Positions 1,137 through 48,851 of a stretch of 54,651 bases of DNA are shown here, in pieces. Every line of letters begins with the position of its first letter. Positions within the stretch are counted from its first letter, which is position 1. The stretch is from IMG/VR virus record IMGVR_UViG_3300032240_000649, positions 1 to 54,651 of that record. The stretch is one strand, 5' to 3'. This DNA is from a virus. The notes under the pieces are model-generated. The model was not told where the DNA came from and ran no database searches. It was given only the letters and a program-made list of their open reading frames with translations. The position numbers and the translations under genes are program-made.

Positions 1137-1165
1137 GTGTAATGTGAAGTTAAATCATAGCACAA
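1137..1165 (-). promoter_or_regulatory. Possible leftward promoter for gene 912-1121
   Basis: Read leftward, TTGTGC (1165-1160) and TTACAC (1142-1137) are separated by 17 bases and lie just upstream of the gene's ribosome site. The match to a sigma70-type promoter is moderate. The gap 1122-1175 also holds the ribosome site of the portal gene (CAAGGAAC). Confidence 0.3.
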
Positions 1166-5966: not shown

Positions 5967-6539
5967 ATGTCTTCGACTAATGCTCCGTTCGGCTTGCGTC
6001 CTTCGTTCCACCCATCGGGTCTGGATCGCGCTGTGGCGCTTGCTAACGGTATTGCCTCCGGTTACAGCACCGGAATTTTGAAGGGTCAACCTGTTGCCCT
6101 TAACACGTCAGGCAACATCGTTGCTGCTACTGCTGGCAGTGCCTATCAAGGCGCTTTTGCTGGTCATGAGTACACCGATTTGACTGGCCGTCGTGTTGTC
6201 AGCAACCAATGGCTTGCAAACACTGCATACCAAACTGGTTCTGAAGTGACTTACTACTACTCTGACCCGAACATCGTTTACGACATTCAGGCTGACGGTA
6301 GCTTGGCACAAACCTCTGTTGGCGATCAAGCCAACTTCAGCAACATTACTGCTGGTTCTACGACCACTGGTTTGTCGCAATGCACCATCTCTTCGAGCTT
6401 GGCGGGTGCTGGTAATGTGGGCGATCTGCGCATTATTGGTTTGTATAACGGCGTTGACAATGCATGGGGTGATGCATACACGGTTGTTCAGGTTCAAGTG
6501 AGCCGCAGCCAGTTCGTCGCCACTGTTAACGCAATCTAA
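5967..6539 (+). CDS. Probable capsid decoration/structural protein (190 aa)
   Basis: The start NAPFGLRPSFHPSGLDRA matches the conserved opening of a structural protein family seen immediately upstream of capsid genes in many marine and freshwater phages. The rest is predicted beta-rich (GIASGYSTGILKGQPVALN, then AYQGAFAGHEYTDLTGRRVV), consistent with a head decoration or cementing protein on the capsid surface. AAAGGAG precedes the ATG, and the next gene is the major capsid protein, 13 bases on. Product is inferred from family resemblance and context. Confidence 0.7.
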   Translation: MSSTNAPFGLRPSFHPSGLDRAVALANGIASGYSTGILKGQPVALNTSGNIVAATAGSAYQGAFAGHEYTDLTGRRVVSNQWLANTAYQTGSEVTYYYSDPNIVYDIQADGSLAQTSVGDQANFSNITAGSTTTGLSQCTISSSLAGAGNVGDLRIIGLYNGVDNAWGDAYTVVQVQVSRSQFVATVNAI

Positions 6540-6552
6540 GGAGGACTAAAAA

Positions 6553-7467
6553 ATGGCCGCTCCAATGCGCAGTACGGACTTTCGCTCAATCGTTGAGCCT
6601 ATTCTCAACGAGTGTTTTGACGGAGTCTATGACCAACGTACCGATGAATGGTCGCGAGTTTTCCGCGAGCAAGACGGTATTCCCCGCAACTACCACGAAG
6701 AACCCGTCCTGTACGGTTTTGGCGCTGCTCCTCAGTTGCCTGACGGCACTCCCGTCAGCTACCAGCAGGGCGGCGTGCTGTTCCTCCAGCGCTATGTGTA
6801 CAACGTGTATGGCCTAGCCTTCGCGTTGACCAAAGTGTTGGTTGAGGACGGCGACCATATCCGTATCGGTCAGGTCTATGCTCGTCACTTGGCTCAGTCT
6901 CTCATCGAGACCAAAGAGACTTTGTGCGCGAACATTTTGAACCGCGCGTTCAACAGCAGCTACCCCGGTGGCGACGGTGTGTCTTTGATCAACACCGCTC
7001 ACCCCATCGTGAACGGCACTTTCAGCAACCAGTTGGCAACTTCTGCCAACCTGTCCCAGACTTCTTTGGAGCAGATGCTGATTCAGATCCGTCAAGCTGT
7101 CGACAACAACGGCAAGAAGATTCGTTTGGTGCCCCGCCAATTGGTGGTCGCCCCCGGCAACGTCTTCCAAGCTGAAGTTTTGTTGAAGAGCGTTCTGCGT
7201 GCTGGTACTGCAAACAACGACCTGAACCCTGTCAAGTCTATTGGCTTGTTGGACGAAGGCGCTGCTGTTATCAGCCGTTTGACCAGCTCTACCGCATGGT
7301 GGGTTCAGACCGACGCTCCCGAGGGCATGAAGCTCTTGATGCGTCGCAAGCTGGAGAAGACCATGGAAGGCGATTTCGAGACCGACTCGATGCGCTACAA
7401 GGCTACCGAGCGTTACATCCCCGGATTCACTGATCCGCGTGCAATGTACGGTACTCCCGGCGTATAA
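6553..7467 (+). CDS. Major capsid protein (304 aa)
   Basis: Probable main shell protein of the HK97-fold class. Support: about 300 residues, beta/alpha composition without membrane or low-complexity segments, a strong ribosome site (AAGGAGG), location after scaffold and decoration genes, and a very good terminator immediately behind it, as expected for an abundantly expressed gene. Segments such as FALTKVLVEDGDHIRIGQVYA, followed by a helix (LAQSLIETKETLCANILNRA), resemble the spine helix region of such proteins. PRQLVVAPGNVFQAEVLLKS resembles the phrase often seen where these proteins re-enter the P-domain. The resemblance is to Mu-like/gpT-type capsids; a search would settle the subgroup. 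Confidence 0.85.
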   Translation: MAAPMRSTDFRSIVEPILNECFDGVYDQRTDEWSRVFREQDGIPRNYHEEPVLYGFGAAPQLPDGTPVSYQQGGVLFLQRYVYNVYGLAFALTKVLVEDGDHIRIGQVYARHLAQSLIETKETLCANILNRAFNSSYPGGDGVSLINTAHPIVNGTFSNQLATSANLSQTSLEQMLIQIRQAVDNNGKKIRLVPRQLVVAPGNVFQAEVLLKSVLRAGTANNDLNPVKSIGLLDEGAAVISRLTSSTAWWVQTDAPEGMKLLMRRKLEKTMEGDFETDSMRYKATERYIPGFTDPRAMYGTPGV

Positions 7468-37295: not shown

Positions 37296-38053
37296 TGGTG
37301 TTGGTTCTTCAACTGCCAAAATTGTAAGAGAGACATAAACATGGCCCAGCCACGCTTGAGGTCCTCTTGCGACCATTCTTTGACGACCACCAGCCCGGGC
37401 ACGCTGCGCGATACAAACACGTTTGCACATCGGGCCTCTGGCATGCCCAAGCCAACCCGGTAGGCGGCAAGCTGCATCAGGTGCTCATCGTAGGCGTCAA
37501 CCTTCTTGGGGTCGTCAAACTCTTTGGTCTTGATGTCGGCCACCACGCCGGGCGCGTGCAAGTCAACCTTGCCACCAAACCCAGCCTCGTGGGCAAAGGC
37601 CCGTTCAGAAATCCATTCCAAGGCCCCAAATTCCTTCACCAAGGCCTTCGCGCAGCCTTCGACATGTGCATGGTGCTTGGTGACCGCTTGGCCCTCATAG
37701 AAGCCCTGTATCGAGGCGTGGATGTCCGTACCAGCATCGGCGGCGGCTCGGCCCTGCTCTTTACTGTCGTCCATGATGCGGGCGATGTAGTCGTCTTCCG
37801 GCTCGTTGTCAATGCGCGGCAGCGTGAGCGCGGCCAGCAGGACCTGCTTTTGGACCCACTGAATGAGCGCTGGCTTGGCCGCCACGTTCAGGATGGTGGT
37901 CACGCTGGGGACAAGACTCTCGGTGCGAGCGTCACGCAGGGTGGTGTTGCGCTCTTTGCCGTTCTTGCCCATGACGGTGTAACGGGGCACGCCGTCGCGG
38001 GTGTACCAGTGATTGCCTTCGCTGGCGCGGGGTTCTTTTGCTGTGATGGTCAT
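37292..38053 (-). CDS. PD-(D/E)XK nuclease, RecB/Cas4-like exonuclease (253 aa)
   Basis: Probable DNA exonuclease in phage recombination or host-DNA turnover. Motifs in order: AGTDIHASIQGF (H112, the RecB-family histidine), SERAFAHEAGFGGKVDL (E150, D164), VVADIKTKEF (D173, K175) and HLMQLAAYRVGL (the QxxAY motif). This is the complete order expected for RecB/lambda-exo-type enzymes. It lies in the leftward operon with a second candidate nuclease and the ssDNA-binding protein, a typical recombination set. Confidence 0.85.
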   Translation of the reverse strand: MTITAKEPRASEGNHWYTRDGVPRYTVMGKNGKERNTTLRDARTESLVPSVTTILNVAAKPALIQWVQKQVLLAALTLPRIDNEPEDDYIARIMDDSKEQGRAAADAGTDIHASIQGFYEGQAVTKHHAHVEGCAKALVKEFGALEWISERAFAHEAGFGGKVDLHAPGVVADIKTKEFDDPKKVDAYDEHLMQLAAYRVGLGMPEARCANVFVSRSVPGLVVVKEWSQEDLKRGWAMFMSLLQFWQLKNQHQ

Positions 38054-40023: not shown

Positions 40024-40052
40024 AGTGTAACAAGTTTAAGTTGAACATACAA
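40024..40052 (-). promoter_or_regulatory. Leftward promoter of recombination operon
   Basis: Read leftward: TTGTAT (40052-40047), 17 bases, TACACT (40029-40024). The spacer contains TTAAAC (40039-40034), a half-site identical to the operator arms of the five accessory promoters at 44635-48292. Regulation by the same protein is possible but weaker. Confidence 0.6.
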
Positions 40053-40057
40053 CCCCC

Positions 40058-40085
40058 TTGCGCATAATTTTTTTTCGTGTATGAT
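40058..40085 (+). promoter_or_regulatory. Rightward promoter of early operon
   Basis: TTGCGC (40058-40063), 16 bases that are T-rich, then TATGAT (40080-40085), about 28 bases upstream of the regulator's ATG. TTAAAC at 40090-40095, near the predicted start of transcription, is another possible half-operator. Back-to-back with the leftward promoter, this makes a lambda-like divergent control region. Confidence 0.65.
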
Positions 40086-40113
40086 GGGCTTAAACCAACC
40101 ACAAGGAGATTGC

Positions 40114-40323
40114 ATGACACTGGAAGAGTTTTTTAACACCAAACCGCGAGGCGCGAAGATCGAAATGGCCCGGGCTTTAGGCGTGAGCAAGACGTGGATG
40201 AGTCTCATCATCAGCGGCAGATCGCTTGCCAGCCCTGAACTGAGTTTGGCCATCGAGCGGTACACCAAAGGCCAAGTGAAGCGCAAGATTTTGCGGCCTG
40301 ACATCTTTGGAGACATACGGTGA
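40114..40323 (+). CDS. Cro/YdaS-like transcriptional regulator (69 aa)
   Basis: Small helix-turn-helix protein. The core GAKIEMARALGVSKTWMSLI, then SGRSLASPELSLAIERYTKG and RKILRPDIFG match the YdaS/Cro family (PF15943), whose members end with the RxDL/LRPD phrase. ATG 40114 has AAGGAG five bases upstream; an earlier ATG at 40081 lies in the -10 box and is excluded. It is the first gene of the rightward operon and faces the leftward one, the place of a Cro-type switch protein. It is a candidate ligand for the TTTAA-N7-TTAAA operators. No partner repressor or integrase is present. Confidence 0.85.
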   Translation: MTLEEFFNTKPRGAKIEMARALGVSKTWMSLIISGRSLASPELSLAIERYTKGQVKRKILRPDIFGDIR

Positions 40324-44634: not shown

Positions 44635-44696
44635 TTGACAAGGTTTAAGTTGGTGTTAAACTTCATACATCGACACAGCAATACCGCACAGTCGAT
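44635..44696 (+). promoter_or_regulatory. Promoter-operator cassette A
   Basis: -35 TTGACA (44635-44640), 16-base spacer, -10 TAAACT (44657-44662). The palindrome GTTTAA-N7-TTAAAC (44643-44661) covers the spacer and -10. The predicted transcript begins at about 44669 with ATCGAC...GTCGAT (44669-44674 / 44691-44696), a 6-bp stem. It drives 44716-45000 and following genes. Confidence 0.8.
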
Positions 44697-44715
44697 TACA
44701 GCGAAGGACAGTGAA

Positions 44716-45000
44716 ATGAACAACGACATCAACTTCAACAGCGTCGACAACCTCGGCTCCCTCTTGGCACAGATCGCCGATCTGCAAAAGCAGGCCGACG
44801 CCATCAAGGACAGCATCAAAGAGTCCGCCAGCGCAGGCGGTGCCAAGGTCGTCGAAGGTGCGCTCTTCAAGGCCACCTACATCGAGAGCAACCGCTCGGT
44901 GTTCGACAAGGACGCCTTCATCAAAGAGCACGGCGCTGAGGCATACGCCAAGTTCACCAAGGTGAGCGCAGTGTTCTCGGTCAAGGTCACCAGCAAGTAA
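44716..45000 (+). CDS. First gene behind cassette A, unknown (94 aa)
   Basis: Helical N-terminus (LGSLLAQIADLQKQADAIKD, coiled coil) and a C-terminal part with strands (AKVVEGALFKATYIESNRSV, then FTKVSAVFSVKVTSK). Small early phage proteins of this layout occur in Proteobacteria phages; no function is known. Ribosome site GGACAGTGAA precedes ATG 44716, similar to the leader ends of the other cassettes. Confidence 0.75.
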   Translation: MNNDINFNSVDNLGSLLAQIADLQKQADAIKDSIKESASAGGAKVVEGALFKATYIESNRSVFDKDAFIKEHGAEAYAKFTKVSAVFSVKVTSK

Positions 45001-45012
45001 TCGGAGGCCGCC

Positions 45013-45405
45013 ATGAAATACCAATTCAATGACGGCGGCCGCAAGGCCGCAGGCTTCAGGGGTACGGCAGGCGACTGTGGTGCTCGCGCCATGGCAATCG
45101 CCTTGGGCCTTGACTACAAGGCGGTTTATAAGGAGCTGGCTCAGGCCAATGCCGACAACGGCCGCGCAAAGTCAGCACGCAACGGCATCAACAAGGACAT
45201 CTACGCCGAGGTGCTCAAGCGATATGGCTGGGTGTGGTTCAAAGCCCCACAGTTTGCGGGCCGCAAAGCTCGATGCAGCGACATGCCAGCGGGCGTGGTC
45301 ATTGCCAAACAAGCTCATCACTTTGTGGCCGTGGTCGACGGCGTGGCCAACGACATTTGGGACTGCACCGGGCGCATGGTGTACGGGTACTGGGCAAAGC
45401 AATAA
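45013..45405 (+). CDS. Papain-like cysteine-peptidase-fold protein (130 aa)
   Basis: Belongs to a widespread phage family of unknown role that looks like a minimal papain-type fold. The nucleophile candidate is C22 in TAGDCGARAMAIALGLDYKA. The histidine candidate is H103 in AHHFVAVVDGVANDIWDCTG, with D117 as the third residue, and the end MVYGYWAKQ is typical. Length and order (Cys...His...Asp) fit amidase, transglutaminase or deubiquitinase-like enzymes. Target unknown; it might process a host or virion protein. TCGGAGG precedes the ATG. It is second in the transcript from cassette A. Confidence 0.7.
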   Translation: MKYQFNDGGRKAAGFRGTAGDCGARAMAIALGLDYKAVYKELAQANADNGRAKSARNGINKDIYAEVLKRYGWVWFKAPQFAGRKARCSDMPAGVVIAKQAHHFVAVVDGVANDIWDCTGRMVYGYWAKQ

Positions 45406-45411
45406 ACCAAC

Positions 45412-45427
45412 CGGGGGCCTCGGCCCC
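45412..45427 (+). terminator. GC hairpin after papain-like gene
   Basis: GGGGGC, CTCG and GCCCCC form a stable stem with no T tract behind it (ATCTAAAG follows). It may stabilise the upstream mRNA or terminate weakly; the next gene's ribosome site AAAGGAAAGCGA follows within 25 bases. Confidence 0.5.
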
Positions 45428-45451
45428 CATCTAAAGCGAAAGGAAAGCGAA

Positions 45452-45631
45452 ATGGATAACTTCACAGCAGTGGGCCTTGCAGAGGGCTTCATCGAGGCAG
45501 AGAGCGAAGAGCAGGTGTTGACCGCGTGGCAGCACCTTGTCGACACAGGCATGGCGTGGCGGCTGCAAGGCTGGTTCGGCCGCACGGCTCGCGACTTGAT
45601 CGACCAAGGCCTGATCGAGGTGGCAGCATGA
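45452..45631 (+). CDS. Small conserved phage protein (59 aa)
   Basis: The pattern GLAEGFIEAESEEQVLTAWQ, then LVDTGMAWRLQGWFGRTARD and LIDQGLI is recognisable from many phages (short 'AWQ.L.DTG...LQGWYGRTA' proteins); its function is unknown. AAAGGAAAGCGAA precedes the ATG. Its end is part of the GGCAGCATGAA junction repeat, overlapping the next start as ATGA. Confidence 0.8.
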   Translation: MDNFTAVGLAEGFIEAESEEQVLTAWQHLVDTGMAWRLQGWFGRTARDLIDQGLIEVAA

Positions 45632-45813
45632 AGCACGCAGCCGTCCAATACATCAGCCTCGGCTACAAGTACGAGAAGGCCAAGTCAGCAGAGGCTGGCC
45701 AAGCCGCCGCGCAGGCCATCAGAAGCCTGCTAGAGGCCGAAACAATCGAAGACAGGACCGAGGCCCGCTATCTTGTCGAGCGCGGCCGTAAAGAGGCGCG
45801 GGAGGGCGTATGA
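45628..45813 (+). CDS. Small helical protein (61 aa)
   Basis: Unknown. MKHAAVQYISLGYKYEKAKS, then AAAQAIRSLLEAETIEDRTE is helical and basic/acidic mixed. It shares the opening residues MKH with the protein at 43522 because of the repeated gene junction. Confidence 0.65.
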   Translation: MKHAAVQYISLGYKYEKAKSAEAGQAAAQAIRSLLEAETIEDRTEARYLVERGRKEAREGV

Positions 45814-45980
45814 GCGAGACCACCATGTCCGAGTACATCAAAGGGTTCGACGCCGGTTACGGCTATGTGCTGGTCGAGATCGAGCGCTGGATCAAGCAGC
45901 ACGAGCACGAGCCGCGAGTCACCCAACCCATCGAGACCCTGCTGGCACACCTGAAAATGGAAGGTAGGGAAAGTACCTAG
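45810..45980 (+). CDS. Small protein before cassette B (56 aa)
   Basis: Unknown. MSETTMSEYIKGFDAGYGYV, then LVEIERWIKQHEHEPRVTQP has the G-FDAGY opening common in small phage proteins. It is ATGA-coupled upstream. Its last codons and stop form the inverted repeat that precedes promoter cassette B. Confidence 0.65.
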   Translation: MSETTMSEYIKGFDAGYGYVLVEIERWIKQHEHEPRVTQPIETLLAHLKMEGREST

Positions 45981-45990
45981 AAAATATTTT
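45962..45990 (+). terminator. Possible weak terminator before cassette B
   Basis: AGGTA (45962-45966) pairs with TACCT (45974-45978), followed by AGAAAATATTTT. The same arrangement is found before cassettes A, C and D. Confidence 0.35.
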
Positions 45991-46001
45991 GGTTGGAAGT
46001 G

Positions 46002-46050
46002 TTGACACCGTTTAAGTTGGTGTTAAACTTCCAATCACTGCAATAAGCAG
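46002..46050 (+). promoter_or_regulatory. Promoter-operator cassette B
   Basis: -35 TTGACA (46002-46007), 16 bases, -10 TAAACT (46024-46029). Palindrome GTTTAA-N7-TTAAAC at 46010-46028; the N7 is identical to cassette A. The predicted RNA 5' end (about 46036) is followed by the hairpin CTGC-N5-GCAG (46038-46050). It drives the ArdC-like gene. Confidence 0.8.
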
Positions 46051-46078
46051 GTAACAGCGAAACGAAAGCGAGATCATT

Positions 46079-46843
46079 ATGGAAAAAGCAAACTTCAGCC
46101 AGCTCCTCAAAGACGCCGTCAACCAACCCGGCATCATCAGCAAGTGCTACAGCACGTTCCACGGCTACAGCATCGGCAACCAACTGCTGGCATGGGTGCA
46201 GTGCGTCGAGCGCAACATTCCCCTTGGCCCCATCGCCACCTACAAAAAGTGGTCCGAGCTGGGCCGTCAAGTCACCAAGGGCCAGAAGGCCATCGCGTTG
46301 GTGATGCCCGTTACCATCAACAAAAAAGACGCCGCAGGCGAGAAGACCGGCGACGTGTTCAGCATGTTCGTGCTGCGCAATAACTGGTTTGTGTTGAGCC
46401 AGACCGAAGGCGAGGACTACGTCAACGAGGTGGTCATCCCCGCATGGGACAAGGCCAAGGCGCTGGCCAAGCTGGACATCAGCGAAGTGCGCTTTGACCA
46501 CGCCGACGGCAACTGCCAAGGCTACGCCAGCGGCCGCACCATCGCGGTCAACCCTGTGGCCGTGCTGCCCCACAAAACCCGCTTCCACGAGTTGGCCCAC
46601 GTTGTGCTCGGTCATACCACCGACGAGGTGATGGCCGACAGCGAAGTGACACCCCGCGACATTCGCGAAGTCGAGGCCGAGAGCGTGGCCTACATTCTGT
46701 GCAGCCTGCTGGATCTGCCCGGCCTGCACGAGTCACGCGGCTACATTCAGAACTGGCTGCAAGGCGCAGAGGTCAGCGACAAGTCGGCCCAGCGCATCTT
46801 CAGCGCGGCCAACAAGATCCTCGAAGCTGGCCAAGACGAGTAA
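46079..46843 (+). CDS. ArdC-like antirestriction protein with metallopeptidase domain (254 aa)
   Basis: The N-terminal part (residues 10-110) resembles the ArdC ssDNA-binding domain: FHGYSIGNQLLAWVQCVERN, then PLGPIATYKKWSELGRQVTK and GQKAIALVMPVT. The C-terminal part is a zincin-like peptidase: TRFHELAHVVLGHT (HExxH at 170-174) and the third-ligand helix EVEAESVAYILCSLLDL (about 198-210). Plasmid ArdC protects incoming DNA from restriction, and related domains occur in phage polyvalent proteins. It is alone behind its own promoter cassette, consistent with early expression on infection. The antirestriction role is inferred from family. Confidence 0.8.
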   Translation: MEKANFSQLLKDAVNQPGIISKCYSTFHGYSIGNQLLAWVQCVERNIPLGPIATYKKWSELGRQVTKGQKAIALVMPVTINKKDAAGEKTGDVFSMFVLRNNWFVLSQTEGEDYVNEVVIPAWDKAKALAKLDISEVRFDHADGNCQGYASGRTIAVNPVAVLPHKTRFHELAHVVLGHTTDEVMADSEVTPRDIREVEAESVAYILCSLLDLPGLHESRGYIQNWLQGAEVSDKSAQRIFSAANKILEAGQDE

Positions 46844-46868
46844 GGGTAAGTCCCTAGAAAATAATTTA
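46843..46868 (+). terminator. Possible weak terminator before cassette C
   Basis: AGGG (46843-46846) pairs with CCCT (46852-46855) around TAAGT, followed by AGAAAATAATTTA. Confidence 0.35.
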
Positions 46869-46880
46869 TCGAGGGGGTTG

Positions 46881-46928
46881 CTGACACCCCCTTGATTTAA
46901 GTTATAATTAAACCACTGCGATGTGCAG
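46881..46928 (+). promoter_or_regulatory. Promoter-operator cassette C
   Basis: -35 CTGACA (46881-46886), 16 bases, -10 TATAAT (46903-46908), a perfect -10. Palindrome TTTAA-N7-TTAAA at 46896-46912. 5' hairpin CTGC-N5-GCAG at 46916-46928. GGGGG/CCCCC (46874-46878 / 46887-46891) could form a hairpin around the -35. Confidence 0.8.
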
Positions 46929-46950
46929 GACAGCGAATCAGGAGCGAATC

Positions 46951-47739
46951 ATGACCAAATTGTTTACCCGCCAAGGCGTCGAGTTCACCGGCACCGTTGA
47001 GACCAACGAGGCTGGCAAGGCCGTGCGTTATGTCAACGTGAGCTGCGACCGTTGCCACGTCATCAACGGCCAGCGCCTGTGGATCATGGGCACTGAGAAT
47101 GGCCGCCCCTACAGCAAGACCGGCTTTGACTGCTGGACCTGCGGCAACACCGGCGTGCGTGGTACACGTCAAGAGCGTTTGTTCACTGAGGCCGAGTTGG
47201 CCCGCGCCAACAAAACCGCAGCCACCCGCGCCGCTCGCAAGGCCGAGGCCGACCGTGTGGCCCGCGAGCAGATCGAGGCCGCCCGTGCAGCCAAAGATAG
47301 CGAGTTCCGCGCAACCTGCGGTGAGTTTATTGCCAAGCTGGCCACACTCAACGGTGAGTTCTGGGACGGCTTCCGCGAATCCTTCCTGAGCCGCGCTGTG
47401 GCCCCTACAGAGCGCCAGATCGCGCTTGTTGATGCCGAGGTAGCCAAGCGTGCTGCAAACGCCGCCAGCGCCCATATCGCGGCCGTGGGCGATAAGGTCA
47501 CCCTGAGCATCACCGTCGAGCGCATTGTGGTGCTGGAGTCTCAAATTTACGGCACAAACTACATCACCATTGGCCGCACGCCAGAGGGCTGCGTGGTGAC
47601 CTACAAGGGCCGCGTTGACCTCGGTGGCGTGGGCGACACCAACACCGTCAAGGCTACGGTTTGCGCGCATACCGTATACAACGGCGTGGCCCAGACTGGC
47701 ATCCAACGCCCCAAGCTGGTTGAAGAAGTATTAGGGTAA
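46951..47739 (+). CDS. Zinc-finger and OB-like domain protein (262 aa)
   Basis: Residues 28-70 hold two CxxC pairs (NVSCDRCHVINGQR, then GFDCWTCGNTGVRG), a zinc ribbon. Residues 80-110 are an Ala/Arg/Glu-rich helix. The C-terminal part (VGDKVTLSITVERIVVLESQ, then GTNYITIGRTPEGCVVTYKG) reads as a beta-barrel/OB-like domain. Similar composite proteins are found in phage accessory regions, probably nucleic-acid binding; the function is unknown. ATG 46951 follows CAGGAGCGAATC and is the first codon behind cassette C. Confidence 0.75.
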   Translation: MTKLFTRQGVEFTGTVETNEAGKAVRYVNVSCDRCHVINGQRLWIMGTENGRPYSKTGFDCWTCGNTGVRGTRQERLFTEAELARANKTAATRAARKAEADRVAREQIEAARAAKDSEFRATCGEFIAKLATLNGEFWDGFRESFLSRAVAPTERQIALVDAEVAKRAANAASAHIAAVGDKVTLSITVERIVVLESQIYGTNYITIGRTPEGCVVTYKGRVDLGGVGDTNTVKATVCAHTVYNGVAQTGIQRPKLVEEVLG

Positions 47740-47757
47740 GTCCTAATAAATATTTTT
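47731..47757 (+). terminator. Possible weak terminator before cassette D
   Basis: TTAGG (47731-47735) pairs with CCTAA (47742-47746), followed by TAAATATTTTT; it overlaps the stop of the zinc-finger gene. Confidence 0.4.
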
Positions 47758-47766
47758 GATCTGGCT

Positions 47767-47815
47767 GTGTTGTTGTTTAATTTGAGGTTATACTTTCAAC
47801 ACGGTCAGCAAGATC
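47767..47815 (+). promoter_or_regulatory. Promoter-operator cassette D
   Basis: -10 TATACT (47789-47794) with a weak -35 (GTGTTG at 47767). Operator TTTAA-N7-TTATA (47776-47792), one base from the shared palindrome. 5' hairpin GGTC-AGCAA-GATC (47803-47815) with one G-U pair. The poor -35 suggests a weaker or activator-dependent promoter. Confidence 0.65.
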
Positions 47816-47840
47816 GGCAACAGCGAAAAGGAACAGCGAA

Positions 47841-47981
47841 ATGACACTTTATCAAACAAACCAAGCCATCAGAACGCTTCGCGCAGCAGCGCACTCAGGC
47901 CCCTTACCAATGAAGCTTCACGACGAAATCACGAAGGCTTTGATCAACTTGTTGAACCACAAAGAATCATTGAAAAAGTAA
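47841..47981 (+). CDS. Very small protein behind cassette D (46 aa)
   Basis: A short helical peptide (MTLYQTNQAIRTLRAAAHSG, then MKLHDEITKALINLLNHKES), function unknown. It has the leader end AAAGGAACAGCGAA shared with other cassettes directly before ATG, which is the main reason to call it a gene. The next gene follows after ten bases with AAGGAGAG. Confidence 0.6.
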   Translation: MTLYQTNQAIRTLRAAAHSGPLPMKLHDEITKALINLLNHKESLKK

Positions 47982-47991
47982 GGAGAGCACC

Positions 47992-48240
47992 ATGTCATAC
48001 ATCGCAGAAATTGAAACCCGTGTGGCAGGCATCCCCTGCATCATCGGCGTCACCCACTTCGAGAGCGTGCGCGGCTCATACAGCTACCACGCTGCCAGCG
48101 ACTGGGACTACCACGGCTACACCGAGGCCGAGTGGGAAGTGCTGGACCGTCGTGGCCGCCCTGCTCCATGGCTGGCCAAGAAGCTGTCCGATAAGGACGA
48201 GTCCCGCATCGAAAAAGAAATCTCAGAATATTTTCAATGA
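47992..48240 (+). CDS. Small conserved-type phage protein (82 aa)
   Basis: The N-terminal beta part (IAEIETRVAGIPCIIGVTHF, then SVRGSYSYHAASDWDYHGYT) and a C-terminal helix (APWLAKKLSDKDESRIEKEI) are typical of small phage early proteins; the function is unknown. It has a strong ribosome site, AAGGAGAGCACC. Confidence 0.75.
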   Translation: MSYIAEIETRVAGIPCIIGVTHFESVRGSYSYHAASDWDYHGYTEAEWEVLDRRGRPAPWLAKKLSDKDESRIEKEISEYFQ

Positions 48241-48244
48241 GCTG

Positions 48245-48292
48245 TTGCAGCCTTGAAAATTTAATGTACAATTAAACCACTGCAACCCGCAG
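48245..48292 (+). promoter_or_regulatory. Promoter-operator cassette E
   Basis: -35 TTGCAG (48245-48250), 16 bases, -10 TACAAT (48267-48272). Palindrome TTTAA-N7-TTAAA at 48260-48276. 5' hairpin CTGC-N5-GCAG (48280-48292). No inverted repeat precedes this copy, but GAATATTTTC does. Confidence 0.8.
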
Positions 48293-48313: not shown

Positions 48314-48508
48314 ATGACACAAGAAATCGAAACAACCATCTACACCGAAGACGACGTGCGCTTGCATGTCAGCGAGTGGGACGATGGTGGCGCATGGATT
48401 CGCCTCAGCGCCCGCCACGGCTCGATGTCCACGGCTCTGACCCGTGCCGAGGCCGAGCAATTGTTGGCTGGCCTGCAAGCCGTCTTGGCCAAAGAGGTGG
48501 CAGCATGA
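48314..48508 (+). CDS. Small protein behind cassette E (64 aa)
   Basis: Unknown. It is predicted as a small beta hairpin domain plus helix (TTIYTEDDVRLHVSEWDDGG, then STALTRAEAEQLLAGLQAVL). The opening resembles small DNA-mimic or regulatory proteins in its acidity, but no family is recognised. Leader end AAGGACAGCGAA precedes ATG 48314. It ends with the GGTGGCAGCATGAA junction. Confidence 0.7.
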   Translation: MTQEIETTIYTEDDVRLHVSEWDDGGAWIRLSARHGSMSTALTRAEAEQLLAGLQAVLAKEVAA

Positions 48509-48711
48509 ACTACGGTCAATGGCACGAGGTGTTCACCAACAAGGTCAAGGGCTACGATTGGCACACATGCCGTCGCGCCTTGTTCGATTGCCACGACACG
48601 CTGGCGCTGCATAAGGACCTGTCGACCGACGACGCCTACTACATCAAGCTGTGGGCCGAGATCGACGCCCTGCGCGAACGTCAACTCAAACTCTCAAAGG
48701 TGGCAGCATGA
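48505..48711 (+). CDS. Small protein (68 aa)
   Basis: MNYGQWHEVFTNKVKGYDWH, then CRRALFDCHDTLALHKDL and KLWAEIDALRERQLKLSKVA is predicted helical, unknown. ATGA-coupled on both sides; both of its ends lie in copies of the GGTGGCAGCATGAA junction repeat. Confidence 0.7.
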   Translation: MNYGQWHEVFTNKVKGYDWHTCRRALFDCHDTLALHKDLSTDDAYYIKLWAEIDALRERQLKLSKVAA

Positions 48712-48851
48712 ACAAGCACGAGATCGACGAAATGATGCGTCATTTACCAAGCCAGCAGCGCGAAGAAACATTGATTGAACGCTGTATAATTGGTACAATG
48801 TTCATTGTGTTTTTGGTATTGCTGATGATGCTGCCCGAGCTGTATCGATAA
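48708..48851 (+). CDS. Small single-TM membrane protein (47 aa)
   Basis: A charged N-terminus (MNKHEIDEMMRHLPSQQREE) is followed by one hydrophobic segment (CIIGTMFIVFLVLLMMLPEL). It is probably an inner-membrane peptide; such early phage peptides may affect the host envelope or superinfection. Function is inferred only from shape. Confidence 0.65.
   Translation: MNKHEIDEMMRHLPSQQREETLIERCIIGTMFIVFLVLLMMLPELYR

What the first reader, a model, noticed from the sequence alone, without database searches (positions are those of the whole stretch)
44635..48292. Five promoter cassettes sharing an operator palindrome in a fixed position
At 44635, 46002, 46881, 47767 and 48245, -35 and -10 boxes are 16 bases apart and the spacer/-10 carries TTTAA-N7-TTAAA (one mismatch in the fourth), always with the second arm overlapping the -10 by the same register. 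Two copies have identical N7. Each heads a short accessory operon. This is a built-in regulon, probably under one phage protein; the YdaS/Cro-like product at 40114 is the obvious candidate, since the divergent control region near it has matching half-sites. I know of no description of this exact module.
Basis: partly seen in the sequence, partly recalled or inferred. Interest (0 to 1): 0.85.

Follow-up and report, generated by a model that had tools for sequence, protein, structure and literature searches.

The report
One phage repressor's multi-promoter operator set
A freshwater phage has about eight promoters that carry the same two-armed DNA landing site, and across its relatives the site's sequence changes in step with the DNA-reading helix of one small phage repressor, so that a single protein very probably switches this whole gene set down; this is a new, well-supported example of a known kind of phage control circuit.

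Summary
The five sites are real. TTTAA-N7-TTAAA occurs exactly at 44644, 46011, 46896 and 48260 and with one mismatch at 47776 (0.05 exact sites expected in the window). All five promoters have a 16-nt spacer. The claim of one fixed register is wrong: three sites put arm 2 on the -10 (register A), two put the -10 inside the N7 (register B, shifted 6 bp). Both registers recur in relatives. The full dyad also lies in both divergent promoters of the YdaS/Cro-like gene (40114) and at a conserved eighth site, 1137.

The decisive test was comparative. Phages whose YdaS recognition helix is SKTWxSL use GTTTAA half-sites; [TS][AV]EWMSK phages use TTGAA; TKQWMAA phages use GTGAAA; a TLTWLGI phage uses TCTAA. 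In the first three classes the same half-site sits at ydaS and at the distant cassettes; in the fourth the ydaS copy has one mismatch. N7 is always kept, and homologous genes appear under different operator types. This identifies YdaS as the regulator with good confidence, and the varied site positions favour repression by occlusion. Binding and timing are inferred. No tyrosine or serine integrase and no HTH_3 repressor was detected. New variant of a known kind (SPbeta SPBRE/MrpR, L5 stoperators).

The parts
40114..40323 (+). ydaS/cro-like gene, 69 aa HTH protein, proposed regulator; recognition helix SKTWMSL
   Evidence: Pfam YdaS_toxin 3.8e-12, P22_Cro weak; PDB chains named Cro (8co2, 8c7k E~1e-8; 3bd1); only PF15943 match in the record
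40077..40095 (+). Operator at ydaS promoter PR: GTGTAT-GATGGGC-TTAAAC; PR -35 TTGCGC 40058, -10 TATGAT 40080, spacer 16
   Evidence: (operator matrix 18.3, promoter matrix 27.5; highest random 12.6 and 6.9)
40034..40052 (-). Operator at divergent promoter PL: GTTTAA-GTTGAAC-ATACAA (arm over the PL -35 TTGTAT)
   Evidence: matrix 11.2, within the random range, but conserved in relatives as [AG]TTTAA-N7-ATACAA
44635..44662 (+). Cassette 1 promoter (TTGACA-16-TAAACT) with operator 44643-44661, register A; UP-like AAAATATTTTT upstream
46002..46029 (+). Cassette 2 promoter (TTGACA-16-TAAACT) with operator 46010-46028, register A; N7 identical to cassette 1
46881..46913 (+). Cassette 3 promoter (CTGACA-16-TATAAT) with operator 46895-46913, register B (-10 inside the N7)
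   Evidence: (23 relatives in this register)
47767..47794 (+). Cassette 4 promoter (GTGTTG-16-TATACT) with operator 47775-47793, register A; weak -35
48245..48277 (+). Cassette 5 promoter (TTGCAG-16-TACAAT) with operator 48259-48277, register B
1137..1155 (-). Eighth operator GTGTAA-TGTGAAG-TTAAAT just downstream of a leftward -10 (TATGAT), between a leftward small gene (912-1121) and the portal gene (1176)
   Evidence: arms conserved with varying N7 in the relatives that carry this arrangement
44716..45980 (+). Cassette 1 genes: 94 aa (phrog_6244), 130 aa (phrog_3754), further small ORFs
46079..46843 (+). Cassette 2 gene: ArdC-N plus zincin-like protein, likely anti-restriction
   Evidence: Pfam ArdcN 1.9e-11, PHROG anti-restriction 4e-13
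46951..47739 (+). Cassette 3 gene, 262 aa, phrog_2319, function unknown
47841..48240 (+). Cassette 4 genes: 46 aa ORF and YuA gp49-like protein (47992-48240)
   Evidence: Pfam YuA_Gp49 5e-25
48314..48851 (+). Cassette 5 genes: 64 aa and two further small ORFs
44668..44698 (+). 5'-terminal hairpin of the cassette 1 leader (ATCGAC...GTCGAT); equivalents at about 46036, 46915, 47801, 48279

Best explanation
This is a phage-encoded Cro regulon. The YdaS/Cro-like protein (40114), expressed early from PR, very probably binds as a dimer to a 17-19 bp dyad, GT[T/G]TAA-N7-TTA[A/C/T]AC. The dyad lies in its own promoter, in the divergent promoter PL, in the promoters of five short accessory operons placed between the replication genes and the terminase, and in the promoter of a leftward gene beside the portal gene. 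The promoters look strong (A/T-rich UP-like block, 16-nt spacer, sigma70-type boxes) and would fire as soon as the DNA enters. As YdaS accumulates it would cover the -10/start region and shut them down together, tuning or ending early expression. The transcripts would begin at a short 5'-terminal hairpin, which probably stabilises the mRNA. Shown: the sites, their conservation, and the joint change of site and recognition helix. Inferred: direct binding, repression rather than activation, timing, mRNA stabilisation.
For: 1) Chance: 4 exact dyads against 0.05 expected. 2) A matrix built from the sites finds 172 distinct relatives with none in shuffled sequence at the same cut-off; information is symmetric in both arms (about 1.1-2.0 bits per column apart from one variable column), and the left arm, which lies in the promoter spacer, is better conserved than the -35. 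3) In register B the right arm lies downstream of the -10 and is still TTA[CA]AC at 1.6-2.0 bits. 4) The dyad lies at PL and PR of ydaS. 5) Specificity switch: SKTWxSL phages have 93 distinct distal GTTTAA-type sites (0.25 expected) and a TTAAAC right arm at PR in 39 of 63 control regions; [TS][AV]EWMSK phages have 13 distal and 9 control TTGAA-N7-TTCAA sites (0.5 expected) and no GTTTAA type; TKQWMAA phages have GTGAAA distally and TTTCAC at PR in 10 of 10; MW202545 (TLTWLGI) has 4 TCTAA-N7-TTAGA sites 29-46 nt upstream of genes and a one-mismatch copy at its ydaS. 6) Homologs of the cassette 1 gene (63-71% identity) and of the YuA gp49-like gene stand under TTGAA operators in the second class. 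7) YdaS of prophage CP-933P binds and represses PRM and PR like Cro (PMC8630535). 8) The dyad occupies at least four positions relative to promoters (A, B, PR, PL, 1137), as occlusion allows and activation rarely does.
Against: No binding, footprint or RNA data exist for these phages. The helix/half-site association rests on about three independent switches, two of which (TKQWMAA, TLTWLGI) have few distal sites. MW202545's own ydaS site has one mismatch, and that genome also has two TTGAA-type sites. Some phages with a class 1 helix lack an exact control-region site under the patterns used. PL's second arm is imperfect (ATACAA) and its matrix score is within the random range. Many register A sites have a TTATAC right arm, one mismatch from symmetry, as expected of a compromise with the -10. 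Three YdaS loci with other helices showed no sites of these types.
Confidence: 0.82

Rival explanations
1. The dyad is an activator or alternative-sigma site: a phage protein binds it to turn the cassettes on (a middle-promoter switch, like T4 MotA).
For: The sites are tightly tied to promoters, and the -35 is poor in some (GTGTTG at 47767), which an activator could rescue.
Against: The position relative to the promoter varies: on the -10 (A), around the -10 (B), -10 to +6 (PR), over the -35 (PL), downstream of the -10 (1137). The same dyad sits on the regulator's own promoter. The characterised relative, CP-933P YdaS, is a repressor (PMC8630535).
Confidence: 0.08
2. A host repressor, not the phage's own, binds the sites.
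For: Phages do carry binding sites for host regulators; no binding data exist.
Against: Half-site sequence follows the recognition helix of the phage's own YdaS in four groups, and the ydaS control region carries the matching site.
Confidence: 0.05
3. The palindrome is incidental: one promoter was copied many times and the right arm is merely its -10 box.
For: Register A copies share long flanks (UP-like block, leader hairpin, ACAGCGAA), so duplication or recombination of the module certainly occurred.
Against: Register B, PR, PL and 1137 have unrelated flanks and still carry the dyad; the right arm is conserved when it lies outside the -10; the N7 varies while arms stay; arms switch with the repressor.
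Confidence: 0.04

Closest known systems
SPbeta repeated element (SPBRE) with master repressor MrpR/YopR, Bacillus phage SPbeta (PMC10516654)
   Same: One phage-encoded repressor binds a repeated element in about ten promoter regions of the phage genome, many of small genes of unknown function.
   Different: MrpR is a tyrosine-recombinase-fold protein that maintains lysogeny, and the motif is a 15-bp element; here the regulator is a small Cro/XRE protein, the dyad is N7, and no integrase or lysogeny repressor was detected.
Stoperators and repressor of cluster A mycobacteriophages (L5, Bxb1) (PMC6550527)
   Same: Dispersed sites for one phage repressor; site consensus and repressor specificity diverge together among relatives.
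   Different: Those sites are asymmetric, mostly outside promoters and block elongation in lysogens; here the sites are symmetric dyads that overlap promoters.
YdaS (Cro analog) of cryptic prophage CP-933P, E. coli O157:H7 (PMC8630535)
   Same: Same protein family; autoregulation and regulation of divergent promoters by overlapping operators.
   Different: CP-933P has a CI analog (PaaR2) and CII analog (YdaT), and binding was shown at the immunity region and PL; here neither partner was found, and operators extend to at least six further promoters.
Start-associated and extended start-associated sequences of cluster K mycobacteriophages (PMC3203893)
   Same: A repeated intergenic module, partly an inverted repeat, in front of many unrelated small genes, tied to gene families across phages.
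   Different: Those are 13-bp asymmetric sequences at start codons with 17-bp inverted repeats and variable spacer; the binding protein was unknown in that paper.
TgrL of Caulobacter phage phiCbK (PMC10688885)
   Same: A phage XRE-family regulator expressed at the earliest stage of infection that mainly represses.
   Different: Its described targets are host genes; here the targets are the phage's own promoters.

Membership tests
YdaS family (PF15943) / Cro-type phage regulator | HTH domain of the YdaS/Cro family | tested here: met
   PF15943 3.8e-12, above the curated cut-off; best PDB sequence matches are proteins named Cro
YdaS family (PF15943) / Cro-type phage regulator | Gene lies at a divergent early promoter region and has operators on its own promoter and the divergent one | tested here: met
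   PR and PL dyads, conserved in relatives
YdaS family (PF15943) / Cro-type phage regulator | Partner CI-type repressor on the opposite strand | tested here: not met
   No HTH_3 match in the record; leftward genes next to PL are a replication/recombination set. S24-type or other repressors were not sought. Membership in the protein family stands; a lambda-type switch is not supported.
Phage multi-operator regulon under one repressor (SPBRE/MrpR type) | One motif repeated in several promoters of the phage, far above chance | tested here: met
Phage multi-operator regulon under one repressor (SPBRE/MrpR type) | The motif is bound by a phage-encoded repressor | not testable with these tools
   Only indirect: site and recognition helix change together
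L5-type stoperators | Asymmetric sites, mostly outside promoters, oriented with transcription | tested here: not met
   Sites are dyads overlapping promoters
Temperate phage | Integrase (PF00589 or PF00239) | tested here: not met
   No match for either, controls positive; one near-relative locus in 84,980 bacterial genomes, on a 3.4-kb Burkholderiales MAG contig. Plasmid-like lysogeny not excluded.

The most novel reading that the evidence does not exclude
In a large group of freshwater phages with no detectable integrase, a Cro-only regulon has split into at least four operator specificities, with all operators of a genome re-tuned along with the repressor. This would amount to immunity groups without lysogeny: during co-infection the Cro of one phage would silence the accessory genes of relatives of the same class but not of other classes, and this selects for new specificities.
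Probability: 0.25. Interest if true: 0.78.

Novelty: new variant of a known kind. Interest (0 to 1): 0.62.

Why it matters
It gives a sequence-only identification of a repressor and most of its regulon in uncultured phages, with a natural set of helix/half-site pairs (SKTWxSL-GTTTAA, TKQWMAA-GTGAAA, [TS][AV]EWMSK-TTGAA, TLTWLGI-TCTAA) that can be tested directly in a reporter strain. It shows that accessory genes travel in these phages with a ready-made regulated promoter module, and that the whole operator set can follow a change of repressor specificity. It supports reading the Pfam name 'YdaS toxin' as a Cro-type regulator. It raises the question of why phages without evident lysogeny diversify repressor specificity.

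Tried and rejected
1) Operator-like match at 37322 (-), matrix score above random: absent in 36 of 37 orthologous regions, a coding coincidence. 2) Whether a single fixed register holds: rejected, two registers plus other placements. 3) Cultured close relatives by DNA similarity: none in 50,697 phage records; by protein only MW202545 is near. 4) Integrated prophages: no integrase in the record, only one small MAG contig in genome contigs. 5) First regex for hairpin leaders returned nothing because of its own design; replaced by a matrix scan. 6) The pattern TTGACANNNTTTAAN7TTAAAC over viral contigs gave 83 stretches, a mix of true relatives and probable chance; used only as extra loci. 7) Structure prediction of YdaS did not finish in time and is not used. 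8) A generic sigma70 consensus scan found three of the five promoters and overall did not exceed shuffles much (6 against 3.9), so promoter consensus alone is weak evidence.
Full report
What is there. The dyad TTTAA-N7-TTAAA stands at 44644, 46011, 46896 and 48260, and with one mismatch at 47776. Exact sites number 4 in the window against 0.05 in first-order randomisations. Each belongs to a sigma70-like promoter with a 16-nt spacer. In copies 1, 2 and 4 the -10 lies on the second arm (register A). In copies 3 and 5 the -10 lies inside the N7 and the second arm follows it (register B).

Conservation. Upstream regions of the cassette 2 gene in relatives carry the same module. A matrix from register A sites found 172 distinct sites in the fetched relatives and none in shuffled sequence at the cut-off. 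The profile is symmetric: GT[T/G][T/A]AA - N7 - TTA[C/A/T]AC, with about 1.1-2.0 bits per column in both arms apart from one variable position in the right arm. The left arm, inside the promoter spacer where sigma70 makes little demand, is better conserved than the -35. Left-arm GTG goes with right-arm CAC (34 G/C, 6 G/A, 0 G/T), as symmetry demands. Register B is also a conserved class, with TTA[CA]AC kept at 1.6-2.0 bits downstream of the -10; so the right arm is not kept merely because it is a -10 box.

The regulator's own region. The ydaS control region holds two whole dyads in this window and in its relatives: GTGTAT-N7-TTAAAC on PR (40077) and GTTTAA-N7-ATACAA on PL (40034). A matrix trained without the window ranks PR among the best sites of the genome; the PL score (11.2) is within the random range (highest 12.6) and rests on conservation. 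The matrix also finds 1137, upstream of a leftward small gene beside the portal gene; its arms are conserved and its N7 varies in the relatives with that arrangement. A further match at 37322 (-) is not conserved and is rejected.

The decisive test. If YdaS binds these sites, phages whose YdaS has another recognition helix should have another half-site, at ydaS and at the distant cassettes alike. This was found. Helix SKTWxSL (64 non-redundant loci): 93 distinct distal GTTTAA-type sites against 0.25 expected, and 2 TTGAA sites against 1.25 expected. Helix [TS][AV]EWMSK (9 loci): 13 distal and 9 control-region TTGAA-N7-TTCAA sites against 0.5 expected, and no GTTTAA type. Helix TKQWMAA (10 loci): GTGAAA sites distally, and TTTCAC as right arm at PR in 10 of 10. 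The one complete named relative, MW202545, with helix TLTWLGI, has four TCTAA-N7-TTAGA sites, each 29-46 nt upstream of a gene, and a one-mismatch copy in its ydaS control region. In the second class the genes under the distal sites include homologs (63-71% identity) of this window's cassette 1 gene and of the YuA gp49-like gene: the same gene stands in the same regulon with the operator re-written. The number of independent switches is about three, and this is the main limit of the argument.

Mechanism. The dyad lies on the -10, around it, over the -35, or downstream of the -10 in different promoters. Occlusion by a repressor works in all of these places; activation from all of them is unlikely. 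The characterised family member, YdaS of prophage CP-933P, binds PRM and PR and represses them like Cro (PMC8630535), and the Pfam label 'toxin' has been disputed (PMC5917428). I infer: strong early promoters, then joint shut-down as YdaS accumulates. The transcripts would start at a short hairpin: in 124 of 132 distinct leaders the first base pair lies 0-3 nt from the reference start, and the stem varies by compensating changes (CTGAC/GTCAG, TCGAC/GTCGA, CGGTC/GACCG, CTGG/CCAG). A role in mRNA stability is an inference from general knowledge of 5'-terminal stem-loops. An A/T-rich block resembling an UP element lies upstream of the -35 in most copies.

What the regulon contains. The cassettes hold small genes between replication genes and terminase: an ArdC-like protein (probable anti-restriction), a YuA gp49-like protein, and proteins of unknown function. 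In relatives the module heads about 30 sequence clusters of first genes, some of them probably mis-called starts, so accessory genes evidently move with, or recombine at, a ready-made promoter module.

Known or new. Dispersed operators for one phage repressor are known: SPBRE/MrpR of SPbeta (PMC10516654) and stoperators of cluster A mycobacteriophages, where repressor and site specificity also diverge together (PMC6550527). New here are the Cro/YdaS-only arrangement in phages where neither integrase type nor an HTH_3 repressor was detected, symmetric promoter operators in two registers, and the four helix/half-site classes read from sequence. I searched open-access papers only and found no description of this regulon. 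Verdict: new variant of a known kind.

Noticed in passing
46874-46895 and 23 relatives in register B: A second inverted repeat, AGGGG(G)-N8/9-(C)CCCCT, surrounds the -35 of register B promoters and is conserved. Its role is unknown; PR of ydaS also has CCCCCTTG at its -35.
   Followed up: partly
40491, 48862, 48937, 49207, 51854: The palindrome AACCGAATCGGTT occurs about six times (10 strand matches with up to one mismatch against 0.13 expected), three copies just upstream of the terminase genes. Possibly a second regulatory or packaging signal.
   Followed up: no
46079-46843: ArdC-N domain followed by a zincin-like peptidase domain: a likely anti-restriction protein, conserved in more than 60 viral contigs.
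   Followed up: no
44613, 45980, 46843, 47739 and relatives: The previous gene often ends in TAGGGAAAGTACCTAG or similar (short stem TAGG/CCTA) directly before the A/T-rich promoter block; could be an RNA element or a recombination border.
   Followed up: no
MW202545 about 6160-6670: Cluster of tRNA-like T-arm repeats (TTCGAACC) suggests several tRNA genes in this relative; not annotated in the record.
   Followed up: no
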